A stretch of DNA of 64,000 bases, taken from Pedobacter psychrodurus (GTDB lineage: Bacteria > Bacteroidota > Bacteroidia > Sphingobacteriales > Sphingobacteriaceae). Under the pieces are notes generated by a model. That model did no database searches and was not told the origin of the DNA. It saw only the letters and a program-made list of their open reading frames with translations. Of the stretch, positions 58,641 through 64,000 are shown in pieces. Each line of letters begins with the position of its first letter. Within the stretch, counting starts at the first letter, position 1. The position numbers and the translations under genes were made by a program. Location of the stretch: contig NZ_SJSO01000003.1 of the NCBI RefSeq assembly GCF_004331735.1, positions 62,001-126,000 on the forward strand, written 5' to 3'.

Positions 58641-58679
58641 AAACGAGACAAACAGCATGAAAACTGATTTGTCTCGTTT
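58641..58679 (-). terminator. intrinsic terminator downstream of tRNA fragment
   Basis: Perfect 12-bp stem AAACGAGACAAA/TTTGTCTCGTTT with a 15-base loop. On the minus strand it is followed by TTTTTTATTTT, so it terminates leftward transcription. It lies directly behind the tRNA 3' end, as an original tRNA terminator would. Confidence 0.85.
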
Positions 58680-58681
58680 AG

Positions 58682-58722
58682 TGCTCCCGACGAGATTCGA
58701 ACTCATATCGATGGTACCGGAA
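58682..58722 (-). other. 3' fragment of a tRNA gene (probably tRNA-Arg CCG), att site
   Basis: On the minus strand this reads from an anticodon loop TTCCGGT through a 3' anticodon stem ACCAT, a short variable region, a complete T arm (ATGAG TTCGAAT CTCGT, all five pairs formed) and the acceptor 3' strand CGGGAGC plus A. Beyond the loop (58723 onward) the sequence does not pair with the stem, so the 5' half of the tRNA is missing. This is what site-specific integration at a tRNA anticodon loop leaves at the distal end of an element. The tyrosine recombinase next door supports an attachment site. The amino-acid identity rests on the CCG anticodon reading. Confidence 0.7.
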
Positions 58723-58910
58723 TTTTGGGTCTTTAATGTGAAAAAGATTGTATAAATTTATAATAATAGGCCTTAAAGCCATCTATAAGCCAATATTTTT
58801 CATTAAACTCAAAAATCTAAAATTTGATTTTTTTGAGTTCAACAGGCTTTTTTGATGAATTAAACAGCCCTGTTTTACAAATAATTTACAGTTTTTTTTA
58901 TTACATTATT

Positions 58911-60221
58911 ATGGCAACAATAAGTGCAGTGGTACTCAAACATCAGATGAAAAAAGATGGGACCTTCAATGTAAAGATTCGTCTAACACATAAAAGACAA
59001 ACCCGCTACATTGACACCAAGCAATTTGTAGTTAGAAAACAATTAGACCAAAATTACAACATTAAAGACATGTTTGCCGCGAAGCCAATCTACGATACAG
59101 TTTTTAAATATCGTGAATCTTTAACAAATTTAAATGATAGGGTAGATTATTATACCTGTGAACAATTGTTAGAATATATTCAGGCGGATGGAGAGAAAGT
59201 CGAGTTCATCTCTTTCGGTAGAAAACATATTGAAAAGTTAAAGGCTGAGGGACGTAAGGGAACTGTAACAAATTTCAGAAGCGCGGTAAATCACCTAATT
59301 GATTATTTTGAAAGGGAAGAAGTTTTTATCGATGAGGTTACCTCGAAGATGTTGAAGGATTACGAGGCTTATTTAAGAAAGCCCCGGACCTTGAACCGTG
59401 TCCATCGTAATGGTACTAAATTTCAAATCAAAACTGTAGGCCTTTCTGATGCCGGAATAGCGGGTGCAATGCGCGATCTTCGAGGGCTTTTCAATGTAGC
59501 AAGAGATACCTATAACGATGAGGACCTGGGAATAATCAGGATTCCCCATTATCCTTTTAAAAAATATAAAATTAAGCCTGCTCCCGAAACGAGAAAAAGG
59601 AATATTGATATTGAAACAATCAAGAAAATCAGGGATTACAAGCCAAGGATTGAAGATGGTATTGAAGCGACAACAAGGGATCTGTTTATGCTTTCCTTTT
59701 ATGCATGCGGCACTAATGCTGTTGATATTTTTCATTTTAGAAAAGAGAATATGTACAATGGTAGGCTCGAATACAATAGGATGAAGACTAAGTCTAAAAG
59801 GAGAGATAGAGCTTTTATAAGTATCAAAATAATTGATGAAATGAAACCCATTCTCGATAAATATGTCGGAAAACTTCATGAAAGATTTTCTTCTGCAACG
59901 GGCATGAATTCAGCACTTAGTCAAGGCTTTAACAAGATCTGCCGAGAACTTGAAATCCCAAGAATTTCATTTTATTGGGGAAGACACAGTTTTGCTACAA
60001 TAGCCAGAAATAAATGTCGAAAAAGTAAAGATGATGTTGCTCTTGCATTAAACCATGTAGATGAAACCCGAAAGACTACTGATATTTATATCGAGAAGGA
60101 TTGGGATATTCTGGATGAAGTTCAAAATGCGGTTATAAGTCTGTTAAGAGATAGTCCACTTGGATACAGACCATTTTCATCGAATTTAATTTCTGGATTA
60201 AGTCTCTCCACTTGCCGTTAG
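58911..60221 (+). CDS. tyrosine recombinase / phage-type integrase
   Basis: 436 residues from ATG 58911. The earlier in-frame start at 58824 would add a hydrophobic, unlikely leader. An Arm-type DNA-binding domain at the N-terminus (ISAVVLKHQMKKDGTFNVKI), then a SAM-like core-binding domain and a catalytic domain. Visible catalytic residues are Arg in YWGRHSFATIARN with its preceding helix, His in LALNHVD and Tyr in TDIYIEKDW. The first catalytic Arg position reads ACGTNAVDIFH, with Asn in place of the usual Arg; I recall this in other Bacteroidota integrases. It is 188 bases from the tRNA fragment and likely inserted the island there. Confidence 0.88.
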   Translation: MATISAVVLKHQMKKDGTFNVKIRLTHKRQTRYIDTKQFVVRKQLDQNYNIKDMFAAKPIYDTVFKYRESLTNLNDRVDYYTCEQLLEYIQADGEKVEFISFGRKHIEKLKAEGRKGTVTNFRSAVNHLIDYFEREEVFIDEVTSKMLKDYEAYLRKPRTLNRVHRNGTKFQIKTVGLSDAGIAGAMRDLRGLFNVARDTYNDEDLGIIRIPHYPFKKYKIKPAPETRKRNIDIETIKKIRDYKPRIEDGIEATTRDLFMLSFYACGTNAVDIFHFRKENMYNGRLEYNRMKTKSKRRDRAFISIKIIDEMKPILDKYVGKLHERFSSATGMNSALSQGFNKICRELEIPRISFYWGRHSFATIARNKCRKSKDDVALALNHVDETRKTTDIYIEKDWDILDEVQNAVISLLRDSPLGYRPFSSNLISGLSLSTCR

Positions 60222-60912
60222 ATGGAGTCTGGAGTCGTAAATATTTGATTTTTCTAACATTCTACTACCAAGTATTAAATGCTGCTGGACACCCTATTGT
60301 AGATATCTTGTTTATTGGAGAATCTCCAAATTAATTTATTGTAAAATGCAAAATGTACTGAATAAAGAAATTAAGCAGATGGTGCCATATCTGTTAAGTC
60401 TTGTAACAGTCGCTTAATTTTGGGATCGGTTAATCGAGATGTAGCGTAGCCAGGTATCGCGCCAGCATGGGGTGCTGGAGGGTGGAAGTTCCAATCTTCT
60501 CATCCTGACTAAACTGAAAAACGATGTTAGAATTATTATTCTACTTCGTAATTGAAGAATTTTATGGTAAATGCTTATTGGGTATCTTCAACCTGTAAAG
60601 GTTGGAATTGTCCTGGTCAACATCAGCATGGGGATAACAAATTTACTGAAGTATGTCTTATCGGCCTTTGCGTAAAGATAACCTCCGGACAGCATCACAG
60701 TAGTTTCTCCCAACAATATCATGAGGGGTGGAGTAAACGTTATCTGGCCCAGTTTTAATGCTCCAGTAGTATTGTAGAATAAAGGCAAATAACCTTGTCG
60801 CAAATTAAGTTCAAACCATTGCAAATTATGGTAAAGAATATCAGCTCACTAAAGAATAGATTTGCTTAAACCATTTATAAACCGCATACGATGACATTTG
60901 ACCTGCCTTAAC
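60222..60912. other. gap between recombinase and second GH28
   Basis: Contains the tRNA-Pro-like gene at 60435-60508. Otherwise only weak open frames are present. A hydrophobic minus-strand frame near 60588-60824 (GGYLYAKADKTYFSKFVIP) overlaps an opposite frame of similar length; neither has recognisable homology, so neither is called as a gene. Confidence 0.5.
60435..60508 (+). tRNA. tRNA-Pro(GGG)-like gene, divergent
   Basis: Cloverleaf: acceptor CGAGATG/CATCCTG (one A-C mismatch and one G-T pair), D arm GCG/CGC, perfect anticodon stem CCAGC/GCTGG with loop ATGGGGT (anticodon GGG, 60469-60471), and T stem GGAAG/CTTCT with loop TTCCAAT. After the discriminator A comes CTA, not CCA. The T loop has C where tRNAs have a purine, and the acceptor is imperfect, so it may be a decaying or island-borne copy. 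The proline identity is clear from the anticodon and the GGGGT loop. Confidence 0.65.
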
Positions 60913-62364
60913 ATGAAGAGAACAGTCCTGTATTTTGTCTTCTTATTATTTGTATCATCTTGCTACGCCCAGACTTATAATATCCGAGATTTTGGTGCTA
61001 ATTCCGATAGTACCAAACTTAACACCAAATCGATACAGTTTGCAATTGATAAATGTAATAAAGATGGAGGTGGCGAAGTTCAGGTTCCAGCTGGGACCTA
61101 CTTTACTGGAACAATCTTTCTGAAGTCCAATGTATATCTCCGGCTACTTCCTGGTGCAATATTGCAGGGGAGCTATCACGTAAGCGATTACCCTGAACAT
61201 GACATTTCATCCAAAAAGAAGCATGCTACAATCACACACAATGGAATGTACGTGGCTTGGTTAAAAGCCTTGATTATTGCAGATAATTTGACGAACGCTG
61301 GCATCATTGGCGAAGGAACAATTAAAGGTGCTGGTGAAGGAAGGGCATTTCAATTAGGTGAAAACAAGAATGGTAAGCCGATGAATGTTCTTTTTATCGG
61401 CTGTAAAAATGTGGCGCTTAAAGGTGTACGCATTCTTAATTCTGCACAGATTACAGTCTCTATATCCGATTGTGAAGAGATGTCTATCGATGGACTCTAC
61501 ATCAATAGCTTTGTTAACTGGAATACTGATGGCATGGATATAGATGGTAGAAACATTACTGTAAGCAATTGCATCATTGATTCGGAAGATGACGCGCTAT
61601 GTTTTAAAAGTGAGTATACGGACAAGCCATGTGAGAATATTACAACCAACAATTGTGTGTTAGCCTCTAATTGCAACGGTTTAAAGTTTGGCACAGGTTC
61701 GAGAGGTGGCTTCAAAAACATCACGGTTAGTAATATTGTAATCAAAAAGCCGTCTCGGGACCTCTTAAGAAAGTGGAATATCTTGCCAGGCATTGTTAAA
61801 AAAATCAATACGAATAGCGTAAATACCGGAATTGTGATTTTAGGAGTTGATGGCGGTATCGTGGAAAACATCAATATTTCCAATGTTGTGATGACTGATG
61901 TAATTAGCCCAATAATGATTAGGGTGAGCAAACGTTTTTTGAACGAAGATGGAAAGCCATCAATTATGCGCAATATCTCAATTCATGATGTGTTTGCCGA
62001 GTCGCAGAGCATTATTCCTTCAGTTATTGCTGGCTTGCCGGAAAGCGTTATTCAAGATATACGGATTTACAATGTTAGGCTAATGTTGCCCGGCGATGTC
62101 AATTCCACAAAAGACTTTCCTATACGGGTACCTGAAAACGACAGGGGTTATCCGGAAAACCGGATGTTTGGACTGAAGCTGCCTGCAAACAGTTTGTACG
62201 CGCGTCATGTAAATGGTTTGTATGTCACTAATGTTTCTATCACGACTCAAGCACAAGATATCCGCCCTGTGTTCGTTTTTGATAACGTAAAAGATGCCAT
62301 TCTAGAAAATATCCGGTTTAATGGTAATACCATTAAAAACAAGAGTATAGGCGGTACGAAATAA
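60913..62364 (+). CDS. GH28-family hydrolase (second copy)
   Basis: 483 residues from ATG 60913 (signal MKRTVLYFVFLLFVSS to CYAQ; a TTG at 60898 is rejected). Beta-helix with YNIRDFGANSDSTKLN, GGGEVQVPAGTYFTGTIFLKS (cited in part), NTDGMDIDGRN and DSEDDALCFKSE for the Asp triad. GLKFGTGSRGGFKNI replaces the His-containing motif, and PIMIRVSKR lies at the RIK position. It is the same subgroup as the minus-strand GH28 but clearly diverged. It sits inside the putative island, so a pectin-type enzyme was probably carried or retained there. Confidence 0.87.
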   Translation: MKRTVLYFVFLLFVSSCYAQTYNIRDFGANSDSTKLNTKSIQFAIDKCNKDGGGEVQVPAGTYFTGTIFLKSNVYLRLLPGAILQGSYHVSDYPEHDISSKKKHATITHNGMYVAWLKALIIADNLTNAGIIGEGTIKGAGEGRAFQLGENKNGKPMNVLFIGCKNVALKGVRILNSAQITVSISDCEEMSIDGLYINSFVNWNTDGMDIDGRNITVSNCIIDSEDDALCFKSEYTDKPCENITTNNCVLASNCNGLKFGTGSRGGFKNITVSNIVIKKPSRDLLRKWNILPGIVKKINTNSVNTGIVILGVDGGIVENINISNVVMTDVISPIMIRVSKRFLNEDGKPSIMRNISIHDVFAESQSIIPSVIAGLPESVIQDIRIYNVRLMLPGDVNSTKDFPIRVPENDRGYPENRMFGLKLPANSLYARHVNGLYVTNVSITTQAQDIRPVFVFDNVKDAILENIRFNGNTIKNKSIGGTK

Positions 62365-62448
62365 GTACTCATTGTGGCGGATAACTAATTTTCCCTACAA
62401 TTCACCCTAAAAGAACACTCAATACATGTCAAGTAAGGTTAATTTTGA

Positions 62449-62634
62449 AGCAAGTGTAACTCGGAGCTATGTACTTCTTACCTGCATTTTTACAGCAGCG
62501 TAAATGCGCAGACTAAATCCAATCAATTTTCGGTAATAACTGGAAAAATACCTAACGATACGCTTCAGGTGGCTGTTAAGGACTTGCAGCGTTACATTAC
62601 TAGAACTGTTCCCAATGCAAAAGTAATATGCTAA
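62449..62634 (+). pseudogene. N-terminal remnant of a secreted glycosidase-like protein
   Basis: An open frame without a start reads LHFYSSVNAQTKSNQFSVI, then TGKIPNDTLQVAVKDLQRYI and TRTVPNAKVI before a stop. The VNAQ looks like a signal-peptidase site. The DTLQVAVKDLQRYITRTV segment resembles the N-terminal beta-alpha domain of GH20, GH67 or GH115 and DUF4838 proteins (AAKDLQ.YI). The initiator Met and everything after about residue 45 are missing, so it is dead. Confidence 0.5.
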
Positions 62635-62750
62635 AAATGCCTGCCACAGGTCAATTGAAAGCATTTGCCGTCAAGACTGAAATTTAACGGTGTAATCTGT
62701 TTTGCTAATAAGGCCATGTATATTTGGTCAGCGTTTGGTTGAATTAGACC

Positions 62751-62780
62751 TTAGAAAGTGATAATCTGCTGAAAGCCGGA
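62751..62780 (+). repeat. 30-base fragment homologous to the GH43 gene
   Basis: 27 of 30 bases match 41561-41590 in the GH43 C-terminal domain. In frame it reads LESDNLLKAG against LEKDNLLKAG, with stops on both sides. It is the relic of another GH43-like gene. Confidence 0.6.
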
Positions 62781-63056
62781 TGCAGATAGACTGAGCTTAT
62801 TTTTGGTGACAGGCGTTTATGATTACAGGCCTTGCCATTAAAGTAAGAAGCTTTAGAACCTAGGCTCCATCCCTCGCTTTCAAAATTTTTTTGCTGTTAT
62901 CTGGGTTAATAACGGAACATGCATCCATTTTGTGTGTTCAAACATCAAAGTGAAGGTTAAATTCCGCTTACCAATATTTGCTTCATAATTTTATATTGGT
63001 TATGTGATCGCTGTATGGGTTGGCCCGGACATTATAAATTGATAAAAGAAGATCAC

Positions 63057-63776
63057 TTAGAATAGCTTTTGCAATAACATTTCTTTACGCTGTGGCGAAA
63101 CTTCTACCTCTGCACCATCACTGAACTCTAAAGTGCCTCCGTCACCTTTGCGGTATTTAACCACATAACTCAGGTTTACAATTACCGAACGGTTAATGCG
63201 CATAAAAAAATCATCGTTCAATTGTGTTTCATATTCTTTTAGTGTTTTTGAAACGATGATTTTCTTGTTGTCGGTAAGCAGGAAAACACTATAGTTGCTC
63301 ATGGCTTCTACCCTGATAATGGTTGTTTTATCGATAATATAAATTCCTTCGGCAGTGGGTAAGGCTAGTCTCGCATTTAGAACTTCAGATTTCTTGCTTG
63401 GTTGCCTCATTCTACCAGCAACGCGTTTACGCAAACGGATTATGGCGGTTTTTAGATCATCTTCATCTACGGGTTTCATGAGGTAATCCACAGCACTTAA
63501 ACGAAGTGCTTCCAGCGTATAGCTATCGTAGGCGGTGGTGAAAATTACCTCAAAACTAAAACTTCCCAAGCGCTCTAAGAACTGGAATCCGTTGAGGCCG
63601 GGCATTTCCACATCAAGGAACAGCACATCCGGATCTAACGCAATAATTGCAGCCAGGGCTTTTGCAGGTTCATTAAAAACACCCACAACCTGAAGTTCAT
63701 CTTCGAAAGATTGAAGTTTCTGTGAGAGTAGTTTACTTCCTCGGGTTTCATCGTCTAAAATAACTGCCTTTAACAT
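63057..63776 (-). CDS. LytTR-family response regulator
   Basis: 239 residues. Receiver domain about 1-120 with Asp8/Asp9 and phospho-acceptor Asp55 in LFLDVEMPGLNGF, then Thr-Ala (IFTTAYDSYTLEAL) and the Lys of YLMKPVD. LytTR DNA-binding domain about 140-235 (YIIDKTTIIRVEAMSNYSVF, MRINRSVIVNLSYVVKY, EVSPQRKEMLLQKLF). Partner histidine kinases normally lie just upstream; here 224 bases upstream to the window end show no gene, so the kinase may be beyond the edge or elsewhere. Unrelated to sugar use as far as can be seen. Confidence 0.93.
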   Translation of the reverse strand: MLKAVILDDETRGSKLLSQKLQSFEDELQVVGVFNEPAKALAAIIALDPDVLFLDVEMPGLNGFQFLERLGSFSFEVIFTTAYDSYTLEALRLSAVDYLMKPVDEDDLKTAIIRLRKRVAGRMRQPSKKSEVLNARLALPTAEGIYIIDKTTIIRVEAMSNYSVFLLTDNKKIIVSKTLKEYETQLNDDFFMRINRSVIVNLSYVVKYRKGDGGTLEFSDGAEVEVSPQRKEMLLQKLF

Positions 63777-64000
63777 AGGGAGATGTGTTAATGCTAAAAT
63801 TCGGGTTTTAAATCCGGTTAGCCAAAATTATAATGAGATTTTCTCTGCCACCAGGCGGAGTGGTAATTTTATTTCATTTGCTATAAAGATTGCGTTACCA
63901 ATAATAATCTGTACAGACTATTCAATTGGAAAATTGGCTTCGCAACGACGACCTCTTACCGACAATCATCAAACTCTTTATTCTTTTTAAAAACTGACTT

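What the first reader, a model, noticed from the sequence alone, without database searches (positions are those of the whole stretch)
58641..60221. Island boundary: tRNA 3' fragment, its terminator and an adjacent tyrosine recombinase
The minus-strand fragment (58682-58722) runs from an anticodon loop to the acceptor end, keeps its terminator on the left and lacks the 5' half; the recombinase starts 188 bases to the right. By the usual logic the element extends rightwards, and an intact tRNA on the minus strand should lie at its far end. The GH28 at 60913 and the gene relics would be inside it.
Basis: partly seen in the sequence, partly recalled or inferred. Interest (0 to 1): 0.6.

Follow-up and report, generated by a model that had tools for sequence, protein, structure and literature searches.

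The report
Mobile element carrying a spare tRNA
A 286-kb mobile DNA element in a Pedobacter bacterium has cut the cell's only tRNA gene for the CGG codon in two and brings its own complete, slightly recoded copy of that tRNA, a rescue strategy shared by at least six related elements and different from the textbook way in which such elements repair the tRNA gene they land in.

Summary
In detail: 58682-58722(-) is the 3' 41 nt of a tRNA-Arg(CCG) with its terminator, 188 bp from an intact tyrosine-recombinase gene. The matching orphan is the 5' half of the same gene, 285.5 kb to the right (contig C23:406259-406315), with a 16-bp direct repeat at both junctions; joined, the halves give a perfect native tRNA-Arg(CCG), which relatives carry unsplit with the same flanks. 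The one intact tRNA-Arg(CCG) of the genome (C23:368104-368176) lies inside the element beside its conjugation genes: it is a complete, promoter-bearing spare with a recoded anticodon stem, not a target restored by attP. Six further elements (Pedobacter miscanthi, four Mucilaginibacter genomes including a finished chromosome, one other genus) show the same plan, in four with the spare 85-195 bp from the integrase. Their integrases form one clade (100/98); sister integrases sit in the classical way beside intact tRNA-Met, -Asn, -Phe or -Ala. So this is an ICE family that splits a presumably essential tRNA gene at the 7-bp anticodon loop and rescues the host with a whole spare gene. I found no described precedent in bacteria. 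Activity is untested.

The parts
58641..58679 (-). Transcription terminator of the native (host) tRNA-Arg(CCG) gene; host side of the junction
   Evidence: Same stem CGAGACAAATCAG...CTGTTTGTCTCG follows the unsplit tRNA-Arg(CCG) in G009, G001, G008
58682..58722 (-). Orphan 3' half of native tRNA-Arg(CCG), anticodon loop to discriminator base
   Evidence: 41/41 identical to the reconstituted native gene
58707..58722 (-). Attachment-site direct repeat TTCCGGTACCATCGAT, also at the right junction C23:406259-406274
58716..58722 (-). TTCCGGT, 7-bp anticodon loop; the only sequence shared by both junctions in all six elements whose two junctions were read, taken as the strand-exchange (overlap) region
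   Evidence: SMC90, dw_454, limnophilus, G171; own, P. miscanthi
58723..64000 (.). Left 5.3 kb of the 285,552-bp integrative conjugative element, which runs on to about C23:406258 outside the window (window = C23:62001-126000)
58911..60221 (+). Tyrosine recombinase (436 aa), integrase of the element
   Evidence: PF13102, phrog_216, conserved K292, R358, H382, Y393 over 58 homologues, 93% identical integrase at the same junction in P. miscanthi
60435..60509 (+). Decayed tRNA-Pro(GGG), 217 bp after the integrase, the slot that holds the spare tRNA in Mucilaginibacter elements; role unknown

Best explanation
This is the left end of a 285.5-kb integrative and conjugative element (ICE) of the Bacteroidota TraG/K/M/N type. 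Its tyrosine integrase recombines attP with the anticodon loop (TTCCGGT) of the host's single tRNA-Arg(CCG) gene. Insertion leaves the host gene in two dead halves: the 5' half with promoter at the right end (C23:406 kb) and the 3' half with terminator at the left end (window 58682-58722). Unlike classical tRNA-site elements, attP carries only the anticodon loop and the start of the 3' stem, so no tRNA is rebuilt at either junction. Instead the element carries a complete second tRNA-Arg(CCG) gene with its own promoter and terminator (C23:368104-368176), which replaces the lost function. The spare keeps the anticodon loop but has a different anticodon stem (TGA/TCA next to the loop instead of GGT/ACC), which would keep it from being a good recombination site. 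Shown: split gene, repeats, unsplit homologues, spare inside, same plan in seven elements, integrase clade. Inferred: that the spare is expressed and charged, that the recoded stem gives immunity, that the element still moves.
For: Reciprocal halves with a 16-bp repeat on one contig. The halves join to a tRNA-Arg(CCG) that ARAGORN accepts and match unsplit genes with the same promoter and terminator in G009, G001 and G008. The right flank is core genome found near tRNA-Arg in eight relatives. The same architecture is in P. miscanthi: integrase 93% identical, spare 73/73 identical, different host terminators, tra/mob backbone syntenic at 63-97% aa, cargo different. It is also in the finished chromosome of Mucilaginibacter SMC90 (253.6 kb), dw_454 (124.7 kb), M. 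limnophilus, G171 (107.6 kb) and MAG G472 (integrase end seen). The spare lies 85-195 bp from the integrase in four of them. Conjugation genes TraG, TraK, TraN over cut-off, TraM just under it, plus MobB- and MobC-like matches. The spare is the only CCG tRNA among 49 tRNA hits; CGG occurs 4-6 per 1000 codons in about 80% of genes sampled. The integrases form one clade, 100/98, among sisters with classical tRNA-Met/Asn/Phe/Ala sites.
Against: No expression, charging or excision data. In the two Pedobacter elements the spare lies 30-38 kb from the 5' half and not beside the integrase, so a later rearrangement must be assumed. P. miscanthi, M. limnophilus and G472 are on several contigs or seen from one end only. 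Four other Mucilaginibacter-type genomes carry a tRNA of the spare's stem type with no orphan halves found, so the different stem may reflect ancestry and not selection for immunity. The left flank beyond about 130 bp is not syntenic with relatives, so the left host side is shown only by the tRNA and terminator.
Confidence: 0.87

Rival explanations
1. Two successive classical insertions at one tRNA gene: one element supplied a new 5' half, a second a new 3' half, so that a wholly foreign tRNA lies between two displaced native halves.
For: Islander reports both 3'- and 5'-displacing islands (PMC4383910); the order 5' half, intact tRNA, 3' half is what two insertions would leave.
Against: In M. 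limnophilus and G472 the intact tRNA is inverted relative to the 3' half beside it, which two restorations cannot give. The spare's two anticodon-stem strands match each other (CTGA/TCAG) and not the native ones, so the first insertion alone would have left a mispaired tRNA. Only one tyrosine recombinase was found on the contig, and in SMC90 and dw_454 the supposed second element would hold just the integrase (1.5 kb).
Confidence: 0.05
2. A classical tRNA-restoring island of 247 kb, from the fragment to the intact tRNA at C23:368104.
For: Intact tRNA-Arg(CCG), same strand, at the predicted side.
Against: 5 mismatches in 46 bp with the fragment; the reciprocal 5' half lies 38 kb further on; the flank beyond the intact tRNA is the ICE conjugation module, not core genome.
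Confidence: 0.03
3. Assembly or contamination artefact: a scaffold error splits the tRNA.
For: Draft assembly of 58 contigs.
Against: The same three-part arrangement in a finished Mucilaginibacter chromosome and in other assemblies with the same junction logic.
Confidence: 0.01
4. The two halves are transcribed and joined in trans, as in archaeal split tRNAs, and the internal tRNA is only cargo.
For: Each half keeps one end of the gene; the 5' half keeps the promoter.
Against: No pairing leader was noticed at the 3' half; bacteria have no known trans-splicing of such halves (established knowledge); every element of the group carries a complete tRNA with the same anticodon.
Confidence: 0.01

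Closest known systems
Classical tRNA-site islands/ICEs with anticodon-loop crossover (Islander class; Williams 2002 as cited in PMC8371274)
   Same: Tyrosine integrase, crossover in the anticodon loop, displaced 3' fragment, cargo between
   Different: Those carry the rest of the tRNA gene in attP so that the target is rebuilt at one junction; here neither junction is rebuilt and a whole spare gene sits elsewhere in the element. Islander's length and integrase filters would reject these elements.
CTnDOT-type conjugative transposons of Bacteroidota
   Same: TraG/K/M/N conjugation module (TIGR03783, 03781, 03779, 03780), MobB/MobC-like genes
   Different: CTnDOT itself uses a short non-tRNA site (from memory); the integrase here belongs to a PF13102 family tied to tRNA genes
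Caldiarchaeum tRNA-Thr(GGU) disruption (PMC3293823)
   Same: A 5' tRNA fragment and a second complete tRNA of the same anticodon separated by a recombinase-coding insert
   Different: Archaeal, a 1.8-kb insert, read as the origin of tRNA introns; no 3' orphan half and no family of conjugative elements in the abstract
Tycheposons (as described in PMC10872708; original paper not held)
   Same: Large cargo elements next to tRNA genes with a tyrosine recombinase
   Different: Described there only as bordered by a tRNA; no split gene with a spare copy is mentioned

Membership tests
Integrative and conjugative element (Bacteroidota TraG type) | Integrase plus att direct repeats at both ends | tested here: met
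Integrative and conjugative element (Bacteroidota TraG type) | Conjugation module with relaxase and coupling protein | tested here: met
   TIGR03783, 03781, 03780 over cut-off, TIGR03779 at 170.5 of 172.45 bits; relaxase (MobB, 106.7 of 400 bits) and coupling protein (MobC, 553.7 of 900 bits) are below the NCBIfam cut-offs but clear matches
Integrative and conjugative element (Bacteroidota TraG type) | Excises and transfers | not testable with these tools
   no reads or experiment
Classical tRNA-restoring genomic island | Target tRNA rebuilt at one junction from element-borne attP sequence | tested here: not met
   right junction keeps 16 bp of tRNA sequence from the anticodon loop on and then non-tRNA sequence; left junction has only the native 3' half
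Classical tRNA-restoring genomic island | Displaced tRNA fragment beside an integrase | tested here: met
Tyrosine recombinase | Catalytic residues | tested here: met
   K292, R358, H382, Y393 at 97-100% in 58 homologues; Y355 and N269 in place of the usual His and first Arg, as read by eye against the canonical motif
Tyrosine recombinase | Fold | tested here: inconclusive
   AlphaFold model with mean pLDDT 47.6, not usable; PF00589 gave no match on this contig

The most novel reading that the evidence does not exclude
A natural insert-and-rescue strategy: a clade of integrases turned round relative to its tRNA target, lost the ability to rebuild it, and became dependent on a whole spare tRNA gene recoded so that the element's own integrase ignores it. 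While integrated, the host's CGG decoding depends on the element, which penalises any partial deletion that removes the spare.
Probability: 0.5. Interest if true: 0.75.

Novelty: new variant of a known kind. Interest (0 to 1): 0.64.

Why it matters
A review states that integration into a tRNA gene leaves an uninterrupted copy rebuilt by recombination (PMC8371274), and island finders rely on that rule (PMC4383910). These elements break it, and the standard filters would miss them. They offer a testable case of a mobile element that destroys a presumably essential gene and carries a recoded rescue copy, a natural counterpart of engineered cleave-and-rescue designs (my comparison). They also give one reason why complete tRNA genes travel on mobile elements.

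Tried and rejected
A 247-kb classical island ending at the intact tRNA: rejected by the orphan 5' half. Two tandem insertions: rejected by inverted spares and the self-matching recoded stem. The AlphaFold model of the integrase (4 sequences) had mean pLDDT 47.6, so no fold search was run; no PDB sequence match. Left-flank gene synteny with relatives failed: the 3' side of tRNA-Arg is a variable hotspot. Paper searches for a bacterial element carrying a whole replacement tRNA found none, in an open-access library only.

Full report
What is in the window. The minus-strand stretch 58682-58722 is the last 41 nt of a tRNA-Arg(CCG), from the anticodon loop to the discriminator base, followed on its 3' side by a terminator hairpin (58641-58679); an open tyrosine-recombinase frame starts 188 bases to the right at ATG 58911 and ends at 60221. 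The recombinase has a Phage_int_SAM_5 domain (PF13102, E=3.4e-14), a PHROG integrase match and, across 58 homologues, near-invariant K292, R358, H382 and Y393. PF00589 does not recognise it.

Where the rest of the tRNA is. The window is bases 62001-126000 of a 413.5-kb contig. Searching the genome with the tRNA found an intact tRNA-Arg(CCG) at C23:368104-368176(-), but its 3' end differs from the fragment (41 of 46 matches). The genome also holds a 5' half at C23:406259-406315(-). Reading both junctions shows a 16-bp direct repeat TTCCGGTACCATCGAT: the right junction is ...GCTCCCGTAGTTCAATGGATAGAATTATGGT-TTCCGGTACCATCGAT-TATTCATC, the left is CCCAAAA-TTCCGGTACCATCGAT-ATGAGTTCGAATCTCGTCGGGAGCA. 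Joined, the halves make a complete tRNA-Arg(CCG) that ARAGORN accepts, with a fully paired acceptor stem (GCTCCCG/CGGGAGC). The inserted DNA, counting one repeat copy, is 285,552 bp.

Empty site. Unsplit tRNA-Arg(CCG) genes with the same promoter region and the same terminator occur in G009, G001 and G008. Genes right of C23:408.7 kb are core genes (86-99% aa identity) found near tRNA-Arg on its 5' side in relatives, within about 2 kb in G003, G007 and G011. On the 3' side relatives differ among themselves, so this is an integration hotspot and left-flank synteny could not be used.

What the element is. Its left end holds the integrase and the GH28 gene; the interior is rich in SusC/SusD-like and other cargo genes (read by eye); 202-214 kb of the contig encodes DndFGH and DndCDE; 369-388 kb holds a Bacteroidota conjugation module with TraG, TraK and TraN over their cut-offs, TraM just under, MobB- and MobC-like proteins and a ParA-like ATPase. 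Only one tyrosine recombinase was found on the contig. The intact tRNA-Arg(CCG) lies inside the element, about 1.3 kb from the mobilization genes.

The same plan elsewhere. Pedobacter miscanthi RS10 (G072; identified by L178) has a 93% identical integrase beside the 3' half, the 5' half on another contig, and 30 kb inside from it a spare tRNA identical to ours in all 73 bases, with a conserved promoter region. The host terminators differ, so the insertions are most likely independent. The backbone genes are syntenic at 63-97% aa identity while the cargo differs. A pattern scan for the spare's stem led to Mucilaginibacter: sp. SMC90, a finished chromosome (5' half 6,150,088, spare 6,402,085, integrase, 3' half 6,403,680: 253.6 kb); sp. 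dw_454 (124.7 kb); and M. limnophilus (two contigs). A member of another genus, G171 (107.6 kb), and a Mucilaginibacter-genus genome, G472, of which the integrase end was seen, follow. In SMC90, dw_454 and limnophilus the spare lies 109-195 bp after the integrase gene and in G472 85 bp after it; in G171 a second integrase copy lies between. SMC90, dw_454 and G171 carry the conjugation genes.

Where recombination happens. Comparing both junctions of six elements, the shared sequence ranges from 17 bp (SMC90) down to 7 bp, TTCCGGT, in M. limnophilus, whose native tRNA has a different stem. TTCCGGT is the anticodon loop, as expected for the overlap region of tRNA-site integrases (PMC8371274).

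The spare is recoded. Native genes at the split sites have anticodon stems ATGGT/ACCAT (CAGA/TCTG in limnophilus). The spares have GCTGA/TCAGT, GCTGA/TCAGC or GTTGA/TCAAC, always TGA/TCA next to the loop. The changes keep the stem paired. Four other genomes, mostly Mucilaginibacter, carry this stem type with no orphan halves found, so the spare's ancestor may simply come from such a lineage; that the difference protects the spare from the integrase is an inference.

Integrase phylogeny. In the other integrases examined the neighbouring tRNA, where one was recognised, is intact, on the integrase's strand and roughly 180-470 bp upstream (Met, Asn, Phe, Ala, and Arg(TCT) in two), the classical arrangement. 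In the tRNA-Arg(CCG) group the native 3' half lies upstream on the opposite strand and the spare downstream. In a tree of 58 integrases the six Arg-splitting members included are one clade (100/98). So the group has turned its integrase end round relative to the tRNA, which is probably why attP no longer carries a usable tRNA half.

Why the spare is needed. In this genome 49 tRNA hits include Arg anticodons ACG, TCT, CCT and, as the only CCG, the spare; two weak hits were not called by ARAGORN and show no CCG anticodon. CGG makes up 4-6 of 1000 codons and occurs in about 80% of the genes sampled. By standard wobble no other of these tRNAs reads CGG (established knowledge), so the spare should be essential while the element is integrated. 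Precise excision would restore the native gene.

Rivals. Two successive classical insertions would leave the same order, but cannot explain inverted spares (limnophilus, G472) or a spare whose two stem strands match each other and not the native ones. Assembly error is excluded by the finished SMC90 chromosome. A classical island ending at the intact tRNA is excluded by the orphan 5' half.

Literature. [quoted passage not shown] Islander is built on that rule and drops candidates under 2 kb, over 200 kb or without an integrase in the interval (PMC4383910), so it would miss these elements. The nearest precedent found is an archaeal tRNA-Thr with a displaced 5' fragment and a second complete copy around a recombinase gene (PMC3293823). 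The paper library is open-access only, so a described precedent could have been missed.

Limits. No expression, charging, excision or transfer data. P. miscanthi, limnophilus and G472 are fragmentary. The structure model of the integrase was too poor to use. Only the best-scoring homologues were inspected, so the frequency of the arrangement is not known.

Noticed in passing
window 60435-60509(+): A decayed tRNA-Pro(GGG) (48 bits, several changes at positions identical in 11 relatives) lies 217 bp after the integrase, in the slot where Mucilaginibacter elements keep their spare tRNA-Arg; no other Pro(GGG) was found in this genome. It may be the relic of a spare for another target.
   Followed up: partly
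L014:2239-14436 (C23:202239-214436): Complete phosphorothioation-type defence set DndF, DndG, DndH, DndC, DndD/PbeC-like, DndE as cargo of the element.
   Followed up: partly
G000:C1:246630-248169: Another tyrosine integrase about 1.1 kb from the intact tRNA-Arg(CCT), probably a classical tRNA-site element.
   Followed up: no
G033:C5:299150 and C5:351397: A probable classical 52-kb island at the same tRNA-Arg(CCG): intact tRNA plus displaced 3' fragment.
   Followed up: no
L113 (G136:C2:94249-99971), G103:C34, G122:C22: Tandem arrays of three to four related integrase genes in a row; purpose unknown.
   Followed up: no
L176, L180, L181, L182: Four genomes, mostly Mucilaginibacter, carry a tRNA-Arg(CCG) of the spare's stem type without orphan halves: either the source of the spare or hosts where a spare has replaced the native gene.
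   Followed up: partly
C23:1-120640 (window 1-58640): Left flank has almost no synteny with the 3' side of tRNA-Arg in relatives; it may be an older layer of islands at the same hotspot.
   Followed up: partly
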